A stretch of DNA of 64,000 bases from Nitrospira sp. GTDB taxonomy: Bacteria; Nitrospirota; Nitrospiria; Nitrospirales; Nitrospiraceae. Below the pieces are notes generated by a model that ran no database searches, was not told the origin of the DNA, and was given only the letters and a program-made list of their open reading frames with translations. Of the stretch, positions 29,011-42,703 are shown piece after piece (within the stretch, counting starts at the first letter, position 1; every line of letters starts with the position of its first letter). The translations under genes and the position numbers were made by a program. Location of the stretch: contig JANDJI010000004.1 of NCBI GenBank assembly GCA_024331125.1, forward strand, positions 186,001 through 250,000. The letters are read 5' to 3'.

Positions 29011-29259
29011 ATGACCAATCGAAAAGGGACGGCCACGTTTCACCTGAGCAAGACAGGCGCTTCCGGCCGCCCGGCGGTCGAAGTCGCCCTCGTGGGAGGC
29101 GGCACATTGGCCGACGTTTCCACCGCGCTCGCCAAGAACATCACGCGCAACGCTGAAATTCTCAAGAAAGTCGGCCTCAAGGCCTGCCCCGCCTGCATTT
29201 CCGGCTTCGACATCTGGATCCGCCATCGCTTCGACGACGTCATTCAGGTGAAGCTGTAA
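29011..29259 (+). CDS. Probable MNIO-modified peptide precursor with CPAC motif
   Basis: An 82-residue protein. The first 57 residues look like a structured leader (RPAVEVALVGGGTLADVSTA, LAKNITRNAEILKKVG) and the end reads LKACPACISGFDIWIRHRFD and then DVIQVKL. The only two cysteines form a CPAC pair at residues 59-62, followed by aromatic and His residues, an attractive substrate for the DUF692 enzyme encoded 12 bp downstream. No signal peptide, unlike bufferins. AAGGAG lies nine bases before the ATG. A non-RiPP role as a small zinc- or copper-binding protein is possible. Confidence 0.65.
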   Translation: MTNRKGTATFHLSKTGASGRPAVEVALVGGGTLADVSTALAKNITRNAEILKKVGLKACPACISGFDIWIRHRFDDVIQVKL

Positions 29260-29271
29260 GGGAATCGAGTC

Positions 29272-30153
29272 GTGACGCGGGTCACCGAACCCGGTGTCGG
29301 GCTGCTTTTCAACCCCGCGCTTGCGGATTTCGTTCGCGCGGATCTCGAGCAACTGAACCATCTGGCCGTCATTCCGGATCGAGCATGGATCGATCACGGC
29401 CCCGGACACCGGCGGCGTTTTGAAGAGCTGCCGGTTCCGCTTGCGCCGGTTGAACAGGCCGCGCATCGGTTGCCGATCGCATTGCACGCGATCGGGCTCT
29501 CGATTCTCAGCGCCGACTTCTTCGATACCGAGTATCTCGATCAATTGGCCCGCTGGTGCGAGCGCCTGGACTGCGCATGGGTGAGCGAACACCTGTCGTT
29601 TACGCGCGTCGGTTCCGGCCACGGCACGCACGCCGCGTTGGCTTTGGCGATGCCATACGATGCCGAGGTGCTCGACCTCCTGATTCCGCGCGTCCGCTCG
29701 GCCCGGCGGACGGTGGGCGTCCCGTTCCTGCTTGAAAATCCGGTCGCATACGTCGATTACGGCGACGAGGAAATGAGCGAGGCGGAGTTTTTCAACGCGC
29801 TCATGGCCGAGACCGGTTGCGGCATGTTGCTGGATCTCCACAATCTATATGCGAACGCCCGCAACCGTCGTTGCGACGCGCCCGAATACCTTCGACGACT
29901 CGACCTTTCCGGCGTCATTGAGATTCACATCGCCGGCGGTGACGAGATGATGGGGCTCCATACCGATTCACACGCCGGACCGGTGCACGCGGGGGTTTGG
30001 CCGCTGCTCGAATGGGTGCTCCCGCGAGCTCCCAATTTGCGAGCCGTGACGTTCGAGTTTCATGAAGGCAGTTGGCCTCTGTTGCACCGACAGGGAGTAC
30101 TGACTCAGTTGAACATCGCCCGCCGCGCGATCGAGCAGGTTGGCGCTTCCTGA
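29272..30153 (+). CDS. MNIO-family (DUF692) multinuclear non-heme iron enzyme
   Basis: A 293-residue DUF692 protein with a TIM-barrel fold. Family blocks are HAIGLSILSADFFDTEYLDQ, CAWVSEHLSFTRVGSG, VPFLLENPVAYVDYGD, GCGMLLDLHNLYANARNRRC, VIEIHIAGGDEMMGLHTDSH, HAGVWPLLEWVL and TFEFHEGSW; these hold the His, Glu, Asp and Asn ligands of the iron cluster. Known members oxidise cysteine or nearby residues of RiPP precursors (oxazolone-thioamide, thiooxazole, carbon excision). It begins at GTG 29272 between the CPAC peptide and a partner protein, the standard MNIO order. Confidence 0.85.
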   Translation: MTRVTEPGVGLLFNPALADFVRADLEQLNHLAVIPDRAWIDHGPGHRRRFEELPVPLAPVEQAAHRLPIALHAIGLSILSADFFDTEYLDQLARWCERLDCAWVSEHLSFTRVGSGHGTHAALALAMPYDAEVLDLLIPRVRSARRTVGVPFLLENPVAYVDYGDEEMSEAEFFNALMAETGCGMLLDLHNLYANARNRRCDAPEYLRRLDLSGVIEIHIAGGDEMMGLHTDSHAGPVHAGVWPLLEWVLPRAPNLRAVTFEFHEGSWPLLHRQGVLTQLNIARRAIEQVGAS

Positions 30154-30168
30154 TCCAAGGACTCACCC

Positions 30169-30780
30169 GTGTCGCTTGCTGAATTTCAACGCGCCCTCAC
30201 ACACATGACGCTCGACGTACGCTTGGCCCGCCGGATCAAGCGCGATGGGGAGTCCGCACTGGCGCCCTACGGGCTGACCGATCGCGAGCGCGCGAGGCTG
30301 ATGCGCATTTCCCGACAGCCGGGAATGGCGCTCAACTGCACGCTGGCCCGAGCCAATCGCTTCACATCCATCTGCGACGCTTTCCCCATGACCTGCGTCG
30401 TCCTGGAACCCTGGTTGCGCGACTTGCTCGACGACTTATGGTCGACCGAGGCTCCCGCGGATTATCAACTCCGCGGCGAAATAGACCTTTTTGCACGTTG
30501 CGTCGAGCGGGAGTGGCTGCCTCGGAAGAACATCGAATACTTGCGGGAGATCTTCGACTACGAGCGGGCCTGCCACGAGCTGGTGACCGCGTCAAGAGGC
30601 TCGTCCCTCGAGGCAATGGCGGGAACGGTGCGACGGATTCATTTTTCTCACGATCCGTCGCACATCCTGCCTCCGCTCCAAGACGCGACGGCTCCTCCGC
30701 CTGGATTGCCGATCACCCCGCACATCGTGGAAGTGGAAATTCGGGACGGTGCCTTGGAGACCCGCTGGCATCGGACGTGA
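30169..30780 (+). CDS. MNIO partner protein (putative precursor-recognition subunit)
   Basis: A 203-residue soluble protein, start GTG 30169 with AAGGA seven bases upstream. The N-terminal 60 residues (LAEFQRALTHMTLDVRLARR, SALAPYGLTDRERARLMRIS) resemble the small helical domain seen in LigA-like and other RiPP-associated proteins. The rest is helical with Cys residues (NCTLARANRFTSICDAF, FPMTCVV) and ends in a beta segment (HIVEVEIRDGALETRW). MNIO enzymes normally need a partner that binds the precursor leader; position and spacing make this the candidate. The sequence alone does not prove the role. Confidence 0.6.
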   Translation: MSLAEFQRALTHMTLDVRLARRIKRDGESALAPYGLTDRERARLMRISRQPGMALNCTLARANRFTSICDAFPMTCVVLEPWLRDLLDDLWSTEAPADYQLRGEIDLFARCVEREWLPRKNIEYLREIFDYERACHELVTASRGSSLEAMAGTVRRIHFSHDPSHILPPLQDATAPPPGLPITPHIVEVEIRDGALETRWHRT

Positions 30781-32033: not shown

Positions 32034-33836
32034 ATGGCCGACCTTAAAACGGCGCAAGAGACGCTGGCCGCGGCGGCGGTCAGGAACGCGGAAGATCCGG
32101 AAACGGCTTCCGTCAAACGCATCCTCAAGTTGCTGGACAAAACGGCCAAGTCGAACCGCACCTACGGCCCGACGAACCCCGTGGCTCAAAAGTTCGCCCG
32201 ACAGCTTTTCGAGGAATTGACCGGTCATCTGGCCGCCTATTCAAAACTCACCTTCCTTGTTCATCGTTCCGAGTTGCGGTTCAACGATTCCGTCGTCTAC
32301 CAAACGGACCTCAACGAGGGCGGCGAGAGCTTCGCGTTCAAACTCTACGCGGACGGCATTCGCGAGCTTTCGATCTACGAAGGCCTCTCTCAAGAAGATC
32401 TGACGTACTTCCTCGATTCGATATGGGAAAACACGGAGTCCGGCCAAGAAGACGATGACCTCGTCACCCGCCTGTGGTCTCGGGATCTCTCTACGATCGT
32501 GATCGTAACGGCGGAAGAAGTGGCCCACTCGTCATCCCACGACAATACAACGGACCGGGCCGGTCCGATCATGAGTTCGTCCGACTCCTCGCTTCGGGAC
32601 TTATTGGACCGCGAGCGAGCCAGCCGGACGAATGAAACGACCGCTTCCGAGGCGGAATCGACGAACCGGAGCAACCGCTTGCATAACGGTCTGGTCGGGT
32701 TCGAGGTCACCGACGAAGAGTTGGCGGCCCTCGCGCGGGACATTGAGGCGGAGCGGGATCGGGACGGTCTTTTGCACATCATGGAGATGTTGACCGCCGT
32801 TCTCGCCTCCGAACAGTCGTCGGCGCTGCTGACGAAACTGTTCGACGTATGGGGGGACATTATCGATCTCCTCCTCCGCGAGGGAAAATGGACGACCTTG
32901 GAGCATGTGGTCAGTCTGCTTCATGAAGCCGACGCGGTCAGGCCGGACCTCGGCGAAGAACACAAACAACAGGTCCGCGCTCTTCTCGACGGATTCGGCC
33001 GCCCGGGCCGGATAAAAGCCATCGAAGCCTATCTGAATCAACATCCGGACGGCTCGACGGCCGGCCTCCCGACGATTCTGTTGCTGATGAAGCCGGACGC
33101 CGTTCCCGGACTCTGTTCCCTGTTGGCCAACCTGGCGTCGCCGGCTCATCAGGCCATCGTCGCCGAAACGCTGGCGACCCTGGCGAAAGACAACCCCGAA
33201 CCGCTCATCAAAGGGCTGCGGGACCGAAGGCCGGCCTACGTATGCCATCTCCTCGCGATTCTCACCAAGTTGAAGAACCCGGCGTTCGCCGAATCCGTCG
33301 AAAAGCTCGTTCGATACCCGGATATGCAGGTCCGCAAAGCCGTCGTGCACGCGATCGGCTCGTTGCGTCCGAGCGGCGACGGCCTGAAACTTCTTTCCTT
33401 CATGGACGATGAAGAGGAAAGCATCCGCATCGCGGCCTTAAAACTGCTGAACTCGGGGCAGTACTCGGTTTCATTTTCCCACTGGCTTCCCATTCTGTCG
33501 GCCGATACGTTCGGGAACCGCCCGATCAGCGAGCGCCGGGCGATGTTTCACGCCGTCGGAGCGACGTGCGGGGACGAAGCGGTCCCATATTGGGAAGGTC
33601 TTTTGACCGCATGGTCGTGGCTCGGCCGAAAGAAAAAAGAAGAACTGGCCGTATTGGCCGCGGAAGCTCTCGGCAAACTCGGCACTCCCGCGGCCGTGGC
33701 GGCGCTCGTCAACGGGAGCAAGAAAGGCGGCGCCACGGTTCGGCAAGCCTGCACCCACGGTTTGTCGCGCGCTCAACAACGGACTCGGCACAACGCACCG
33801 GCCGCCCCCTCGGCCGACAAGGAGCCGCAAGCATGA
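32034..33836 (+). CDS. HEAT-repeat protein with N-terminal module shared with the HD-GYP neighbour
   Basis: A 600-residue soluble protein. Residues about 20-130 (ILKLLDKTAKSNRTYGPTNP, KLTFLVHRSELRFNDSVVYQ, YADGIRELSIYEGLSQEDLT) match in pattern the N-terminus of the HD-GYP protein encoded next. A polar Ser/Asp/Glu linker (about 165-225) leads to helical HEAT-like repeats over residues 230-590 (LLTKLFDVWGDIIDLLLREG, LVRYPDMQVRKAVVHAIGSL, VLAAEALGKLGTPAAVAALV). AAGAGG lies immediately before the ATG. The stop overlaps the HD-GYP start (ATGA), so the two are made together and probably form a signalling complex. Confidence 0.7.
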   Translation: MADLKTAQETLAAAAVRNAEDPETASVKRILKLLDKTAKSNRTYGPTNPVAQKFARQLFEELTGHLAAYSKLTFLVHRSELRFNDSVVYQTDLNEGGESFAFKLYADGIRELSIYEGLSQEDLTYFLDSIWENTESGQEDDDLVTRLWSRDLSTIVIVTAEEVAHSSSHDNTTDRAGPIMSSSDSSLRDLLDRERASRTNETTASEAESTNRSNRLHNGLVGFEVTDEELAALARDIEAERDRDGLLHIMEMLTAVLASEQSSALLTKLFDVWGDIIDLLLREGKWTTLEHVVSLLHEADAVRPDLGEEHKQQVRALLDGFGRPGRIKAIEAYLNQHPDGSTAGLPTILLLMKPDAVPGLCSLLANLASPAHQAIVAETLATLAKDNPEPLIKGLRDRRPAYVCHLLAILTKLKNPAFAESVEKLVRYPDMQVRKAVVHAIGSLRPSGDGLKLLSFMDDEEESIRIAALKLLNSGQYSVSFSHWLPILSADTFGNRPISERRAMFHAVGATCGDEAVPYWEGLLTAWSWLGRKKKEELAVLAAEALGKLGTPAAVAALVNGSKKGGATVRQACTHGLSRAQQRTRHNAPAAPSADKEPQA

Positions 33837-35362
33837 ACAAATCGTTCTCTCCTCCCTCGATCGGCGCTCCGCCGATTCTCGCTCACGAGCAATCGCTTGC
33901 CAGAAAGGTGGGACAGGGCTCGGAGGCCGGCGACATCTACGATCAACAGATGGCGATGTTGGGGTTCCAACTGCTGACCCAACTGAACGCTTTGATCAAA
34001 ACGTCCCGCATTCACGGTCGCAACAACGCCGCCCTCGACAAGCCGGTCGAGTCCATGTTGACGCTCATCCACACCATGGCGCACGAGCATCCGGTCACGC
34101 TCCGCGTGCAGAACGATTTCTTCTTCCTGGGCGAGGACCATCTGCGGGTCAGCCAGCAACAGATGCTGGTCCTATCCAACGTGATCGACGCCCTGAACAC
34201 CTGGAAAATGGGCGGCCTCACCTTTTCCCGCTCACTATCCTCCGACGACCTCCGCCAGTTCGCTTCTTTGTTCGTCAGCCTCGATCCCGCCACGCAGTCG
34301 ATCGACGACTTTCGGCGAGCGCTCGCCGCGCTCAACGTCACGGGCATCACGATCGAAAGCCCCCGCGCGTTGGCGCCGGCGGCCTCATCCGACGACAATT
34401 CCCCGAAGCTTCGCCGGAAAGCGCAGATGAAAACCGCCTATGAAAAAGTCTCCGACGCGGTCGGCCGCCTCACTCAATCCGCCCGCGAGGGGGGCACCCT
34501 AAGCTTCAAACAAGCCAAACGGGCCATTCAAAACATCGTCGATCTGATGATGCAGGACGAGCCGGCGATGTTGGGCTTCACGACGTTGCGCTGTCACGAC
34601 CAGTACACCCAAGAACATTCCGTCAACGTGGCGTTGCTTTCCATGGCGCTCGGCAATCGGGCGGGATACGCCAAAGTCGAGCTGGCCGACCTCGGTTTGG
34701 CGGCGCTCTTCCATGACGTGGGGAAATGCGCGATCTCGCTGGATATCCTCAACAAGCCCGGCGAGTTCAGTCCCGAGGAGTGGGAAATCATGCAAACCCA
34801 CCCCAAAGAAGGGGTGTTCACGCTTATCAAATTGCGCGGCTTCGGAAACGTTCCGGCGCGAATGGCCTCCGCGTCCTTTGAGCATCACATGAATTACGAC
34901 TTTTCGGGCTACCCCAAACTGGCCGTCCCCTGGACGCAAAGCATCTCGAGCCGCATCGTGTCGATCGCCGACTGTTACGACGCGATGACGTCGTCCCGCG
35001 TCTACCGACGCGAGGCGATGGCTCCCTCCAAGGTCCTGCGCCTGATGCTTGAGAAGGCAGGAACGAGCTTCGACCCGACGCTCATGAAGCTGTTCGTGAC
35101 CTGTGTGGGCATCATCCCAATCGGCAGTCTCGTGGAGCTCACGAACGGCGCGTTTGCGGTCGTGCTCAAACCGGCCGCCAGCCTCTCGGACAGCGAACGT
35201 CCGCTCGTCAAAGTGATCGCCGATCCGGAGGGCAATCCTCTCGACCATGGATCGGAGCTGGACTTGACTGAAAAGGACGAGACCGGAGGCTACACCCACA
35301 GCATCGCTCGTCTCATCGACCACACCCGACACAAATTCGACACCAGTCGCTATTTTGTGTAG
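33833..35362 (+). CDS. HD-GYP domain protein (c-di-GMP phosphodiesterase-like)
   Basis: A 509-residue protein. The N-terminal module (residues about 45-170: LNALIKTSRIHGRNNAALDK, PVTLRVQNDFFFLGEDHLRV) parallels the HEAT-repeat neighbour. The HD-GYP domain starts near residue 250: CHDQYTQEHSVNVALLSMAL, LAALFHDVGKCAISLDILNK, MQTHPKEGVF and, in place of the usual HHExxDGxGYP, EHHMNYDFSGYP. Metal-binding HD and HH are kept, but Met and Phe replace Glu and Gly around the GYP loop, so activity against c-di-GMP is likely but not certain. No signal peptide or membrane span is seen. Confidence 0.8.
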   Translation: MNKSFSPPSIGAPPILAHEQSLARKVGQGSEAGDIYDQQMAMLGFQLLTQLNALIKTSRIHGRNNAALDKPVESMLTLIHTMAHEHPVTLRVQNDFFFLGEDHLRVSQQQMLVLSNVIDALNTWKMGGLTFSRSLSSDDLRQFASLFVSLDPATQSIDDFRRALAALNVTGITIESPRALAPAASSDDNSPKLRRKAQMKTAYEKVSDAVGRLTQSAREGGTLSFKQAKRAIQNIVDLMMQDEPAMLGFTTLRCHDQYTQEHSVNVALLSMALGNRAGYAKVELADLGLAALFHDVGKCAISLDILNKPGEFSPEEWEIMQTHPKEGVFTLIKLRGFGNVPARMASASFEHHMNYDFSGYPKLAVPWTQSISSRIVSIADCYDAMTSSRVYRREAMAPSKVLRLMLEKAGTSFDPTLMKLFVTCVGIIPIGSLVELTNGAFAVVLKPAASLSDSERPLVKVIADPEGNPLDHGSELDLTEKDETGGYTHSIARLIDHTRHKFDTSRYFV

Positions 35363-35426
35363 CCGTCCGGACGCCCGCGGCCGCCACGCGCTTGACAGCC
35401 TCAAATCACCTCGCCGACAATGCGGC

Positions 35427-36338
35427 ATGCCGGAGTCCATCGTGATCGAGCGGTTGGAATTCCGCGGCCGCTGCGGCGTGACGGCCGAAGAACGGGCCCG
35501 TCCGCAACCGCTCGCGATCGACGTGGAACTTCGCGGCTCCTCCGAACAGCCGGATCTCGACGACCGGCTCGAACTCACCATCGACTATGCCGCCGTCGCC
35601 CGGCGCCTCGTGGAAGTCGGAACGGCGCAAGACTGCCGTTTGTTGGAAACCATGGCCGAGCGACTCCTCAGAGTGTTGTTCGAGGAATTTCCGATCGAGC
35701 AGGCCAAGCTGTGGCTTCGAAAACTCCATCCGCCGATCGATCTTGTCACCGGCTCCGTCGGAGTCTCCGTCGAACGGACCAGAGAGACTCACCGAACCCG
35801 ATACGATGATGACGCCCCGGCTCGACTGCTCGTCGAACAACTGCACCGACTTCCCGCCGGCACCGCGCTCGACGTGGCGGCCGGAAGCGGTCGCCACTCG
35901 CTGTTTCTCGCGTCCCACGGCTACCAGGTCCACGCCGTCGATCGGGATGCCGCCGCCCTGGAGCGGCTCACCACCTCCGCCCGGTCACGTTCGTGTGACA
36001 GAATCACGATACAGGTCGTCGACCTTGAACAGCCCCCTCCCCATGAACCCCGTCTCGGCAAGGAACAATACGACGTAATCGTCGTGTTTTTTTATCTGTA
36101 TCGCCCTTTGTTCCCTCTCCTCATCGACGCGCTGAAGCCGGGCGGCGCGCTGGTCTATGAAACGTTCACCATCGACAACCACGTTTACTACCACCATCCG
36201 AAGAGACGTGAATTTTGCCTCGACTCCAACGAGCTGCTGAACCTTGCGTCCGATCTCCGGATCCTGCATTATGACGAGGGGCGCCGGACGGATCGCCCGG
36301 CGTACACGGCCCGACTCGTCGCACGAAAACCATCTTGA
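35427..36338 (+). CDS. Dihydroneopterin aldolase (FolB) fused to a SAM methyltransferase
   Basis: A 303-residue fusion. Residues 1-118 are FolB-like: IVIERLEFRGRCGVTAEERA, PLAIDVELRG, LTIDYAAVARRLVEVG, LLETMAERLLRVLFEEF and LRKLHPPIDLVTGSVGVSVE, with the catalytic Lys kept before HPPI. Residues about 130-303 are a class I methyltransferase: GTALDVAAGSGRHSLFLASH, HAVDRDAAALERL, YDVIVVFFYLYRPLFPLLID and ALKPGGALVYETFT, close to TehB-like enzymes. FolB normally forms a homo-octamer in folate synthesis. No stop or frameshift separates the halves. I know no characterised fusion of this kind. Confidence 0.75.
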   Translation: MPESIVIERLEFRGRCGVTAEERARPQPLAIDVELRGSSEQPDLDDRLELTIDYAAVARRLVEVGTAQDCRLLETMAERLLRVLFEEFPIEQAKLWLRKLHPPIDLVTGSVGVSVERTRETHRTRYDDDAPARLLVEQLHRLPAGTALDVAAGSGRHSLFLASHGYQVHAVDRDAAALERLTTSARSRSCDRITIQVVDLEQPPPHEPRLGKEQYDVIVVFFYLYRPLFPLLIDALKPGGALVYETFTIDNHVYYHHPKRREFCLDSNELLNLASDLRILHYDEGRRTDRPAYTARLVARKPS

Positions 36339-36352
36339 GAGGCATGACCGAC

Positions 36353-37201
36353 ATGAGCCGCGCGGATCTTCATCTGCACACCACCCATTCCGACGGAAGT
36401 CTGACTCCCTCCGAGGTCATCACCCTCGCGCACGAGGCCGGCGTGACGGCGGCCGCCGTGACCGATCACGACATCACATCGGGCATACCCGAAGCCACGC
36501 GGACCGGCCGAGAGCTCGGCATCGACGTCATTCCCGGAGTCGAGATCAGTTCCCTCTTCGGTGACGCGGAATTGCACGTGTTGGGATACTTTCTCGACTG
36601 GCAAGACGAGACGTTGAATCGACGGCTGGCGGTCCTCCGCGAGAGCCGCCACCGGCGAAATCCCAAAATCATCGAACGGTTGCAGGCCGCGGGGATTGAT
36701 ATTACCTACGACGAGGTTCGCGCGGTCGCCGGAACCGATTCGGTCGGACGGCCGCATATCGCGCGAGTGCTGATTGACAAGCGCGTCGTCGCATCGGCGC
36801 AAGAAGCGTTCGATCTGTGGCTTGCGGAGGGACGCCCGGCCTATGTCGCGCGCGAACTCCCCACTCCAGCGGAAGCCATCCGATGGATCAAAGACGCAAA
36901 GGGACTTGCGGTCCTCGCCCACCCCACTTGGATCAAGACACCGGAAAGCACGTTGCCGGATCTGGCCCGGCGGCTCAAAGCCGACGGACTCTCCGGCATC
37001 GAAGTCTATTACAGCACGCACACCCCCCGGCAAACACGCGAGTATTTGGCGTTGGCCAAACAATTGGACCTGCTGGTCACGGGCGGAAGCGACTTCCACG
37101 GAGTAACCAAGCCGGATATCCGCGTCGGCGTCGGCAGAGGAACGTTGCGCGTTCCCTCCTCTCTTGTCGATGCCATGAAGCATGCGCACTCCATGTTATA
37201 G
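36353..37201 (+). CDS. PHP-domain phosphoesterase (YciV/RNase AM type)
   Basis: A protein of about 282 residues with the polymerase-and-histidinol-phosphatase metal motifs: ADLHLHTTHSDGSLTPSE, AAAVTDHDITSGIPEA, DVIPGVEISSLFGDAELHVL, GRPHIARVLIDK, AVLAHPTWIKTP and VTGGSDFHGVTKPDI. The set matches nucleoside-3',5'-bisphosphate phosphatases / 5'-3' exoribonucleases of the YciV (RNase AM) group. The start at 36353 has AGAGG ten bases upstream; the ATG at 36344 would leave no space for it. It follows the FolB fusion by 14 bp, so probably the same operon. Confidence 0.85.
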   Translation: MSRADLHLHTTHSDGSLTPSEVITLAHEAGVTAAAVTDHDITSGIPEATRTGRELGIDVIPGVEISSLFGDAELHVLGYFLDWQDETLNRRLAVLRESRHRRNPKIIERLQAAGIDITYDEVRAVAGTDSVGRPHIARVLIDKRVVASAQEAFDLWLAEGRPAYVARELPTPAEAIRWIKDAKGLAVLAHPTWIKTPESTLPDLARRLKADGLSGIEVYYSTHTPRQTREYLALAKQLDLLVTGGSDFHGVTKPDIRVGVGRGTLRVPSSLVDAMKHAHSML

Positions 37202-37279: not shown

Positions 37280-37307
37280 TTGACTCGCCTTGATGATCCG
37301 TTAGACT
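37280..37307 (+). promoter_or_regulatory. Predicted promoter of the kinase gene, TTGACT-N16-TAGACT
   Basis: TTGACT (37280-37285), 16 bases and TAGACT (37302-37307). Transcription would start near 37314, which rules out the in-frame GTG at 37308 and supports ATG 37335 as the kinase start. Confidence 0.5.
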
Positions 37308-40429: not shown

Positions 40430-40843
40430 CTATTCGCCGATGATCTTCACCAGCACTCGTTTTCTTCGACGACCGTCAAACTCTCCGTAAAAAATTTGCT
40501 CCCACGGACCGAAGTCCAGCTTGCCGTCCGTGACGGCCACCACCACCTCTCGCCCCATGATTTGACGTTTCACATGAGCGTCGCCGTTGTCTTCGCCGGT
40601 GTCGTTGTGCCGGTAGCGCGCGTCGTGCGGAGCGAGCCGTTCGAGAAACTCGTCGTAGTCGCGCAAGAGGCCTGGCTCGTCGTCATTGATGTAGACGCTG
40701 GCGGTGATGTGCATGGCGTTCACCAGCACCAAACCCTCCCGCACCCCGCTTCTTTTGACCGCCGCCTCAATCTGAGGAGTGATGTTGAGATAAGCCCGTC
40801 TTGTTTTGGTTTCGAACCAGAGTTCTTCACGGTAGGATTTCAT
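40430..40843 (-). CDS. YjbQ/UPF0047 family protein (secondary thiamine-phosphate synthase type)
   Basis: A 137-residue protein: [20 protein letters not shown], a [20 protein letters not shown] block with the family His and Thr, [20 protein letters not shown], and [20 protein letters not shown]. These match YjbQ, a trimeric beta-barrel family in which some members show thiamine-phosphate-synthase activity; its true role is unsettled. The start at 40843 fits the family N-terminus; an ATG at 40861 is an alternative with AGG upstream. Confidence 0.85.
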
Positions 40844-40942
40844 GGCCTGAACGGCCGTCATTGTGCCTGCCGGTCCCACAAGTTTCAAGAGGAAGGCCGA
40901 ACGGCAGGGGACTCTTTATCACTGACCGCTCCCACAGTATGA

Positions 40943-40954: not shown

Positions 40955-42703
40955 ATGGTCGCACCACGTCGGCTGCCGGAACCGAAATTTTCGCGGAACG
41001 CGCACATCGTGCTGCGGCAGCGGTATCTGGCCAAAGGCCCAGGCGGAGCCATCACAGAATCTCCACGTGCCATGTTGTGGCGCGTCGCCCGCGATATCGC
41101 GTCAGCGGAACGGCATTCCGCGTCGGCGCCGCGCCTCCACGCGCTGGCCCGTCAATTTTACGAGCTGATGGCCTCCCTGATTTTTCTGCCGAATTCGCCG
41201 ACGCTCATGAACGCGGGCCGCCCTCTCCAGCAACTTTCAGCCTGCTTCGTGCTGCCGGTGGAGGATTCGTTGGAATCCATTTTCGAATCGCTCAAGCAGC
41301 AGGCGCTCATCCATCAATCCGGCGGAGGCACGGGATTCTCGTTCGGTCGCCTTCGTCCTCAAGGCGATCGCATCGCCAGCACCGGGGGACCGGCGTCAGG
41401 CCCGGTTTCCTTCATGCGTCTCTTCAATCTGGCGACGGACGTCATCAAGCAGGGGGGAACGAGGCGCGGCGCCAACATGGGAATTCTGCGCGTCGATCAT
41501 CCCGACATTCTGGAGTTCATCGACCTGAAACGACGGCCCGGCGAGATGAGCAATTTCAACCTCTCCGTCGGCCTGACCGACCGATTCATTCGGGCAGTCA
41601 CGCGGCGCCGCACCTATGCGCTGGTCAATCCGCGCACCGGTCGACCGGTCCGTCGCCTACCGGCCGCATCGGTCTTCGACCGGCTGGTTCAGGCCGCTTG
41701 GCATTCGGGAGAGCCGGGTGTCGTGTTTCTCGACACGATCAATCGAGCCAATCCGACTCCCCACCTGGGCTTGATCGAAGCCACCAATCCCTGCGGGGAG
41801 CAACCATTGCTTCCGTACGAATCCTGCACGCTCGGCTCCATCAATGTTGCCAAATTCGTCGTGCAACGAAACGGCTCACCAGCCATCGATTACAATCGAC
41901 TCGCCGTCGTCATTCCACTCGCCGTCCGATTTCTCGACAACGTCATCGATCGCACCAAATTCCCGGTGTCGCTTATTGAAACGCACACCAAGTTGACGAG
42001 AAAGATAGGACTGGGGATCATGGGCTTTGCCGATCTTCTGATCCGACTCGGTGTTCCCTACGGCAGCGACGAGGCGCTGCGGATTGCGGAAGAACTGATG
42101 GGATTCGTACAATCCCGGGCTCATGAGGCTTCCCGGCGACTGGCCGTGGAGCGGGGAACGTTTCCCGCCTACGCGGGCAGCCGCTTGCAAGCGGAGGGGC
42201 GGGAACGGCGGCATGCGACTGTCACAACCATCGCTCCCACCGGAACGATCAGTATTCTGGCGGACTGTTCGGCCGGCATCGAACCCCTCTATGGAATCAA
42301 CGTCGTCCACTCCGTCATGGAGAACGTTCATTTAGAACGGCTTCATCCGGAATTTCTCAAACAAGCCCGCGCCAGAAAGCTCTCCCTTGAAACCCTGCGC
42401 CGCGAGGTCGGTCGACAGGAATCCATCCAACACGTGACTTCGATTCCGGAGGATCTCCGCCGCCTGTTCGTCACCGCGCACGATATCAGCCCGGCCCTGC
42501 ACGTTCGCGTGCAGGCGGCCTTCCAAAAATACAGCGACAGCGGCGTCTCGAAGACGATCAACCTCCCCGCGTCGGCCACGCCCCAGGACGTAGCCGACGC
42601 GTTCTTGCTCGCCCACAAACTCAAATGCAAGGGTCTGACCGTCTATCGATCCGGAAGCCGACAGCACCAGGTGTTGACCTGCTCCCGCGTCTCATCGTGT
42701 TGA
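40955..42703 (+). CDS. Second adenosylcobalamin-dependent (class II) ribonucleotide reductase
   Basis: A 582-residue class II RNR. Blocks: IFLPNSPTLMNAGRPLQQLS, ACFVLPVEDSLESIFESLKQ, GGGTGFSFGRLRPQGDRIAS, TRRGANMGILRVDHPDILEF, the N-P-C-G-E loop in LIEATNPCGEQPLLPYESCT, VTTIAPTGTISILADCSAGI and HKLKCKGLTVYRSGSR. It ends with CSRVSSC, two cysteines that can act as the C-terminal redox pair. It is shorter than, and distinct from, the enzyme at 1-1465. The family uses the same NDP/NTP chemistry, so redundancy or a different regulation is likely. Confidence 0.88.
   Translation: MVAPRRLPEPKFSRNAHIVLRQRYLAKGPGGAITESPRAMLWRVARDIASAERHSASAPRLHALARQFYELMASLIFLPNSPTLMNAGRPLQQLSACFVLPVEDSLESIFESLKQQALIHQSGGGTGFSFGRLRPQGDRIASTGGPASGPVSFMRLFNLATDVIKQGGTRRGANMGILRVDHPDILEFIDLKRRPGEMSNFNLSVGLTDRFIRAVTRRRTYALVNPRTGRPVRRLPAASVFDRLVQAAWHSGEPGVVFLDTINRANPTPHLGLIEATNPCGEQPLLPYESCTLGSINVAKFVVQRNGSPAIDYNRLAVVIPLAVRFLDNVIDRTKFPVSLIETHTKLTRKIGLGIMGFADLLIRLGVPYGSDEALRIAEELMGFVQSRAHEASRRLAVERGTFPAYAGSRLQAEGRERRHATVTTIAPTGTISILADCSAGIEPLYGINVVHSVMENVHLERLHPEFLKQARARKLSLETLRREVGRQESIQHVTSIPEDLRRLFVTAHDISPALHVRVQAAFQKYSDSGVSKTINLPASATPQDVADAFLLAHKLKCKGLTVYRSGSRQHQVLTCSRVSSC

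What the first reader, a model, noticed from the sequence alone, without database searches (positions are those of the whole stretch)
35427..36338. FolB fused to a class I methyltransferase
A dihydroneopterin aldolase with its catalytic Lys is joined, without stop or frameshift, to a TehB-like methyltransferase. Fusions link consecutive or interacting steps, so a methylated pterin or a folate-linked modification is conceivable. I know of no characterised example.
Basis: partly seen in the sequence, partly recalled or inferred. Interest (0 to 1): 0.52.

Follow-up and report, generated by a model that had tools for sequence, protein, structure and literature searches.

The report
Folate aldolase fused to unknown methyltransferase
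In the nitrite-oxidising bacterium Nitrospira and its whole order, the enzyme that cuts a sugar piece off a folate precursor is built as one protein with a methyltransferase of unknown target; it looks like the only such folate enzyme these bacteria have.

Summary
The fusion is real and is not a sequencing artefact. Window 35427-36338 encodes 303 aa: a FolB domain (aa 1-118) and a TehB/Slr1183-fold class I methyltransferase (aa ~130-303). Full-length fusions occur in 55 of 59 near relatives. Order-wide, FolB is found in 114 of 117 Nitrospirales genomes and 112 of 115 FolB hits lie in frames of at least 304 aa. Elsewhere in the phylum the halves are separate genes. FolB active-site residues and the SAM motif are invariant in 30 diverse fusions, and both halves are under purifying selection. 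So this is almost certainly the order's working dihydroneopterin aldolase carrying a live methyltransferase of unknown substrate. The methyltransferase's substrate-side motif is the same in free-standing relatives, so the fusion probably did not create a new reaction. Hints of a pterin link are weak: divergent molybdopterin genes (33 of 81 loci), FolD-MetF neighbours in one family. A PHP-type phosphatase directly follows in 73 of 81 loci, a candidate for the missing dihydroneopterin-phosphate phosphatase. Pterin methylation is possible but unproven.

The parts
35392..35421 (+). sigma-70-like promoter (TTGACA-18-GACAAT) ending 6 nt before the ATG; suggests a nearly leaderless transcript of the fusion gene
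   Evidence: pattern scan, 10 of 12 matches; 2 sites found in the region against 0.3 expected in shuffles; consensus match only
35427..35780 (+). FolB (dihydroneopterin aldolase) domain, aa 1-118
   Evidence: PF02152 5.7e-25; TIGR00526 66 bits over its cut-off of 45.05, TIGR00525 72.1 against 72.15; E22, Y54, E74, K99 invariant in 30 fusions; model matches DHNA 1sql_A Z 17.2
35781..35813 (+). linker, aa 119-129, variable
   Evidence: alignment conservation; low pLDDT block
35814..36338 (+). class I SAM-dependent methyltransferase domain, aa 130-303, and stop codon
   Evidence: PF03848 and PF13649 over cut-off; SAM motif L148 D149 A151 G155 invariant; Slr1183 3mer_A Z 24.4 over 166 residues, E. 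coli TehB 2xvm_A Z 23.0 over 168
36344..37201 (+). PHP-domain phosphoesterase (best NCBIfam model 3',5'-nucleoside bisphosphate phosphatase, under its cut-off), start 5 nt after the fusion's stop, likely same operon
   Evidence: PF02811 2.5e-11; NF041577 217 bits, cut-off 400; directly downstream on the same strand in 73 of 81 fusion loci; GAGG before ATG 36344
33833..35362 (+). HD-GYP protein directly upstream, seen only in part of genus Nitrospira; probably not part of the unit
   Evidence: PF13487 2.7e-17 (scanned from 33836); HEAT-HDGYP upstream only in some loci of the window's genus

Best explanation
This is a two-enzyme protein. The N-terminal FolB domain is the dihydroneopterin aldolase of the folate pathway (7,8-dihydroneopterin to 6-hydroxymethyl-7,8-dihydropterin plus glycolaldehyde) and, in nearly all Nitrospirales, the only one. 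The C-terminal domain is an active, TehB/Slr1183-like small-molecule methyltransferase that was a free-standing Nitrospirota gene before it was joined to FolB, probably once, at or before the base of the order. It most likely keeps the reaction of its free ancestor. FolB enzymes form octamers (recalled), so the fusion would display several methyltransferase domains on a FolB core and tie both activities to one promoter. Shown: the fusion, its conservation, intact motifs, selection on both halves, presence of FolE, FolK and FolP. Inferred: both activities, the oligomer, and the identity of reaction between fused and free methyltransferase. Unknown: the methyl acceptor (my split: small molecule not linked to pterins about 0.6, pterin-, folate- or molybdopterin-linked about 0.3, macromolecule about 0.1).
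For: Fusion in 55 of 59 relatives. In the 295-genome phylum draw 97 of 98 Nitrospirales genomes carry both domains, G255 split by contig ends, G018 lacking both. Order scan: FolB in 114 of 117 genomes, 115 hits, 112 in frames of at least 304 aa; one genome (G327) has an extra free FolB. FolK in 14 of 15 Nitrospirales tested and FolE in 15 of 15 (each of 20 genomes with outgroups), Pterin_bind (FolP) in 15 of 15. Invariant E22, Y54, E74, K99 and SAM motif in 30 sequences. dN/dS window against L035: FolB 0.195, MT 0.188. C-terminal motif YETF-H-HP-R-EFC-NEL shared by fused and free MTs. FolB tree: 17 fused rows on one side of one branch, support 85.
Against: No activity has been measured, by me or in any paper found. 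The equivalog model TIGR00525 is missed by 0.05 bit. The FolB domain of family f4 is divergent around the Lys (ITLTKKT). In the MT tree the fused rows need 2 changes, because 7 free Nitrospirales paralogs on a long branch fall among them, so a single origin is not proven. The relative placing of the two domains is not known (pTM 0.62).
Confidence: 0.8

Rival explanations
1. The methyltransferase acts on a pterin or a pterin-derived cofactor (dihydroneopterin, hydroxymethyl-dihydropterin, a folate or a molybdopterin intermediate), and the fusion passes substrate between neighbouring active sites.
For: Lineage-wide fusion; divergent MoaC/MoaDE/MoaA next door in 33 of 81 loci; FolD and MetF next door in 3 of 3 f4 loci; one free MT overlaps MoeA (L065); 12 of 13 MT-bearing genomes tested for it have FolK.
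Against: Free MTs with the same motif lie by PrmA, ChaN-PDZ, ferredoxin or redoxin genes; outside the order FolB and MT are at distant loci and only 20 of 31 MT genomes have FolB, while 36 of 56 FolB genomes lack the MT. The moa genes are on the other strand. My searches found no report of a methylated pterin in these bacteria.
Confidence: 0.3
2. The methyltransferase detoxifies small thiols, sulfide or metalloids like TehB, and is fused to FolB only for co-expression or as an oligomeric scaffold.
For: Closest solved folds are TehB and Slr1183; a free Nitrospirota MT sits by a peroxiredoxin and a ferredoxin (L064); more distant plasmid homologues lie beside rhodanese, thioredoxin or sulfide-oxidation genes.
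Against: Scores far under the TehB equivalog cut-offs (37 to 51.7 bits against 218 to 303). The plasmid homologues lack the YETF/HP-R-EFC motif, so their context may not carry over. One of the four plasmid contexts read shows no sulfur genes.
Confidence: 0.3
3. The methyltransferase modifies a macromolecule (ribosomal protein, tRNA), FolB being a passenger.
For: In family f20 the free MT follows PrmA (ribosomal protein L11 methyltransferase) in 5 of 6 loci fetched.
Against: Small single-domain TehB-like fold without an RNA-binding part; PrmA is not beside the fusion in any of the loci.
Confidence: 0.1
4. Assembly chimera or frameshift artefact.
For: None found.
Against: Same fusion in tens of independent assemblies including single-contig genomes G022, G024, G039, G052, G113, G196, G279.
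Confidence: 0.01

Closest known systems
FolB, dihydroneopterin aldolase (PF02152)
   Same: fold, size, order of motifs, catalytic Glu, Tyr and Lys
   Different: carries a methyltransferase at its C-terminus; CGVT instead of the more usual HGV (recalled), a feature shared with free Nitrospirota FolB
FolB-FolK and FolB-FolK-FolP fusions (eukaryotes, Bifidobacterium longum; PMC1971073 section 11 read, PMC4224340 search listing only); also seen here in L196
   Same: FolB joined to another domain in one chain
   Different: there the partners catalyse consecutive folate steps; here the partner is a methyltransferase with no known folate step
NUDIX-FolB fusion (L195, genome G202, this phylum)
   Same: FolB fused to a second enzyme
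   Different: NUDIX domain at the N-terminus; a plausible preceding step
TehB tellurite methyltransferase (2xvm, 3m70)
   Same: class I fold, Z 23.0 over 168 residues, SAM motif
   Different: about 25% identity, under all TehB cut-offs, different C-terminal motif
Slr1183 of Synechocystis (3mer), function unknown
   Same: closest solved fold, Z 24.4, rmsd 1.6 over 166 residues, 29% identity
   Different: single domain, not fused
free-standing Nitrospirota methyltransferase (for example L054, L063, L064)
   Same: 35-46% identity to the window domain in alignment A2 and the same substrate-side motif
   Different: not fused; unrelated gene neighbours

Membership tests
FolB / dihydroneopterin aldolase | matches the family model over the curated cut-off | tested here: met
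   PF02152 88.5 bits against 31.8; TIGR00526 66 against 45.05
FolB / dihydroneopterin aldolase | passes NCBI's equivalog cut-off (TIGR00525) | tested here: inconclusive
   72.1 bits against 72.15
FolB / dihydroneopterin aldolase | catalytic Glu, Tyr, Lys | tested here: met
   E22, Y54, E74, K99 invariant in 30 fusions; a Tyr and a Lys are the residues mutated in the Y. pestis entries 7su4 and 7su6 (titles)
FolB / dihydroneopterin aldolase | aldolase activity | not testable with these tools
   needs an assay
FolB / dihydroneopterin aldolase | octameric ring assembly | not testable with these tools
   only a monomer was modelled
Class I SAM-dependent methyltransferase | Rossmann-like fold and SAM-binding motif | tested here: met
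TehB tellurite resistance methyltransferase | equivalog cut-offs TIGR00477, NF008405, NF008992 | tested here: not met
   37, 48.4 and 51.7 bits against 219.5, 218 and 303
TehB tellurite resistance methyltransferase | methylation of tellurite | not testable with these tools
   needs an assay
FolB-FolK(-FolP) folate fusions | second domain is HPPK | tested here: not met
   no HPPK match in the window protein; FolK is a separate gene, G000:C3:484587-484982

The most novel reading that the evidence does not exclude
Nitrospirales make a so far unknown methylated pterin: FolB and the fused methyltransferase act on the same pterin in one particle, and the co-operonic PHP phosphatase supplies the dihydroneopterin phosphate removal step whose gene is missing in most bacteria, so that one operon holds three neighbouring steps.
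Probability: 0.12. Interest if true: 0.78.

Novelty: new variant of a known kind. Interest (0 to 1): 0.45.

Why it matters
Nitrospira are among the main nitrite oxidisers on Earth (recalled). An order-wide fusion that holds the only copy of a folate enzyme gives a clean handle on an orphan methyltransferase family: whatever it methylates was worth tying to folate synthesis and keeping across the order. The PHP gene that follows it is a testable candidate for a step of folate synthesis that PMC1971073 (section 11, read) calls unsolved in most bacteria. Annotation that reads this gene as FolB alone or TehB alone would be half wrong.

Tried and rejected
Frameshift or chimera: rejected by conservation. 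TehB proper: rejected on cut-offs. HD-GYP upstream as a FolQ2-like partner (HDIG proteins are FolQ2 candidates in PMC1971073): not conserved beyond part of the genus. A biological loss in G018 (99% complete, no fusion): it also lacks the PHP gene and the MetH-type Pterin_bind hit that the other 14 genomes have, so an assembly gap is likely; not proven. The sulfur-gene context of plasmid homologues: kept only as a hint, because those proteins lack the substrate-side motif. The first neighbour clustering was noisy, as antisense ORFs in this high-GC DNA form families of their own; conserved neighbours were therefore checked by Pfam and tblastn. FolB proteins in long frames outside the order were read: a NUDIX-FolB, a FolB-HPPK, and others with nothing after FolB. 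Literature: no paper of the held library holds dihydroneopterin aldolase, methyltransferase, fusion and Nitrospira, FolB with SAM-dependent methyltransferase and fused, dihydroneopterin with methyltransferase domain, fusion protein and folate biosynthesis, or Nitrospira, folate biosynthesis and folB; the one hit is unrelated by its title and abstract start; the hits were seen as a listing only. Other phyla could not be searched with a profile; the single-protein scan of genome contigs found six Nitrospira fusions and one Enterococcus MT-only hit, so distant fusions elsewhere are not excluded.

Full report
WHAT IS THERE. The frame 35427-36338 runs from ATG to TGA without interruption and encodes 303 aa. 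Pfam gives FolB at aa 5-116 (88.5 bits, cut-off 31.8) and TehB/Methyltransf_25 from aa 136 on (40.8 and 38 bits, cut-offs 20.4 and 27). NCBIfam gives folB_dom over its cut-off, the folB equivalog at 72.1 against 72.15, and TehB equivalogs far below theirs. A promoter-like TTGACA-18-GACAAT ends 6 nt before the ATG, which fits the start at 35427 and the lack of an obvious ribosome site.

HOW WIDELY IT IS KEPT. The full-length fusion is in 55 of 59 relatives (the tool's tally of 56 counts G028, whose match is a weak MT-only hit), at 93% to 38% identity. In the phylum draw of 295 genomes, 97 of the 98 Nitrospirales genomes have a FolB hit and an MT hit; in G255 the two lie on different contigs at contig ends, and G018 has neither. 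In the order scan 114 of 117 genomes have FolB; 112 of 115 hits lie in frames of 304 aa or more. The rest: G255 and G337 at contig ends, and a second, free FolB in G327. For the genomes that are only I rely on frame length, except G321, G327 and G330, which were checked by tblastn. The six genomes without a FolB hit were searched again without success; G018 also lacks the downstream PHP gene and one Pterin_bind hit, which points to missing sequence.

OUTSIDE THE ORDER. Of 197 other Nitrospirota genomes in the draw, 56 have FolB, 31 have the MT (profile A2, E up to 1e-15), 20 have both (counted; a few of the weakest FolB places were not listed by the tool). No MT frame there exceeds 265 aa. The listed FolB frames above 250 aa were read and hold NUDIX-FolB, FolB-HPPK, or FolB at the end of the frame with nothing after it. 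The halves are at different places, for example both on contig C11 of G227 but about 216 kb apart. One trace of a common neighbourhood: in family f9 FolB is followed by a LON-domain gene and a peroxiredoxin (L094, L095, L097), and in f8 the same two genes precede a ferredoxin and the MT (L064). In a quick FolB tree all 17 fused rows are on one side of one branch (support 85). In the MT tree the fused rows need two changes, because seven free Nitrospirales paralogs on a 1.15 branch fall among them. For the tree I used 17 of the 67 fused sequences held, 14 of 14 free FolB and 30 of 31 MT rows; the row left out, L109, is the cut half of the G255 fusion. A single fusion event is thus likely, not proven.

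BOTH HALVES LOOK ALIVE. In 30 diverse fusions (alignment A1) E22, Y54, E74 and K99 of FolB and L148, D149, A151, G155, D172, E201, E245-T-F, H257-P, E262-F-C and E269 of the MT are invariant. dN/dS of window against L035 is 0.195 (FolB) and 0.188 (MT); the other three close pairs gave 0.13-0.33 and 0.15-0.38. The AlphaFold2 model has mean pLDDT 87.4 and pTM 0.62; each domain matches its own fold: 3mer_A Z 24.4, 166 residues, rmsd 1.6; TehB 2xvm_A Z 23.0, 168, 2.5; DHNA 1sql_A Z 17.2, 118, 2.3. The placing of the domains relative to each other is not known.

FOLATE PATHWAY. FolK was found in 19 of 20 genomes tested, 14 of 15 of those in the order (G035 misses); FolE in 20 of 20, one of them (G075) below the cut-off; Pterin_bind in 15 of 15. 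In the window's genome FolE, FolK and the FolP-like hit are on contigs C3, C3 and C5, the fusion on C4. With a complete pathway and no other FolB, the fused FolB is the natural aldolase. Other aldolase families are possible in principle: PMC1971073 (section 11 read) proposes a transaldolase-like FolB2.

NEIGHBOURS. I examined 81 fused loci (window, loci and stretches; they are not independent, and a few are the same organism under two names). A PHP phosphoesterase follows on the same strand, its estimated start within -40 to 150 nt of the stop, in 73 of 81; at least two of MoaA, MoaC, MoaDE lie on the opposite strand within the stretch in 33 of 81. Families were named by Pfam. None of the 14 free FolB loci has PHP within the stretch. 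In family f4 (3 of 3 loci) FolD and MetF adjoin. In the window itself the upstream genes are HEAT and HD-GYP, found only in part of the genus. Free MTs: PrmA beside 5 of 6 f20 loci, ChaN-PDZ beside the one f10 and four f7 loci fetched, MoeA beside L065.

WHAT THE METHYLTRANSFERASE MIGHT DO. The stretch YETF-(L/T)-D-H-HP-(R/K)-R-EFC-NEL is shared by fused and most free Nitrospirota MTs, so the acceptor is probably the same with and without fusion. Free MTs occur in 11 genomes (of 31) without a detectable FolB, yet 10 of those 11 have FolK (G117, 71% complete, is the miss), so most probably make pterins by another aldolase; this test does not separate the readings. More distant homologues on haloarchaeal and Paracoccus plasmids (about 30-36% identity) lie by rhodanese, thioredoxin or sulfide-oxidation genes in three of four contexts read (not 66), but lack the motif. 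I therefore commit to: a working aldolase plus a working small-molecule methyltransferase that keeps its ancestral reaction, acceptor unknown, pterin linkage about 0.3.

COMPARISON AND NOVELTY. FolB fusions are known with FolK and FolP (PMC1971073 section 11; PMC4224340 seen only as a search listing). No text search of the held library turned up FolB with a methyltransferase; the library holds open-licence papers only. I rate it a new variant (domain architecture) of a known kind.

LIMITS. No assay, no search of other phyla by profile, no proteomics. The octamer, the catalytic roles of the residues and the ecology are recalled, not tested.

Noticed in passing
window 29011-30780: A MbnB/TglH/ChrH-type (MNIO) RiPP enzyme gene (29272-30153, PF05114 1.6e-55) is preceded by a small ORF (29011-29259) ending in GLKACPACISGFDIWIRHRFDDVIQVKL, no Pfam match, and followed by a 203-aa gene without Pfam match: looks like a RiPP cluster with its precursor.
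   Followed up: partly
window 36344-37201: PHP phosphoesterase directly after the fusion in 73 of 81 loci; candidate for the dihydroneopterin phosphate phosphatase missing in most bacteria.
   Followed up: partly
L195:458-1429: NUDIX-FolB fusion in Nitrospirota genome G202; NUDIX is the family of the known FolQ, so this may join two consecutive folate steps.
   Followed up: partly
L196:739-1590 (-): FolB-HPPK fusion as a second FolB in genome G318.
   Followed up: no
L112:4585-5478 (-): MoaD-like ThiS domain and MoaE in one protein next to the FolB fusion; relatives recur across Nitrospirales loci.
   Followed up: no
window 40433-40888 (-) and 40955-42703 (+): UPF0047 gene divergent from a ribonucleotide reductase large chain whose listed start may not be the true one.
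   Followed up: no
window 37280-37307: A second promoter-like site ends directly before the GTG of the protein kinase frame (37308), again suggesting a leaderless transcript.
   Followed up: no
L074-L080: Seven Nitrospirales genomes carry a second, free, fast-evolving MT paralog besides the fusion.
   Followed up: partly
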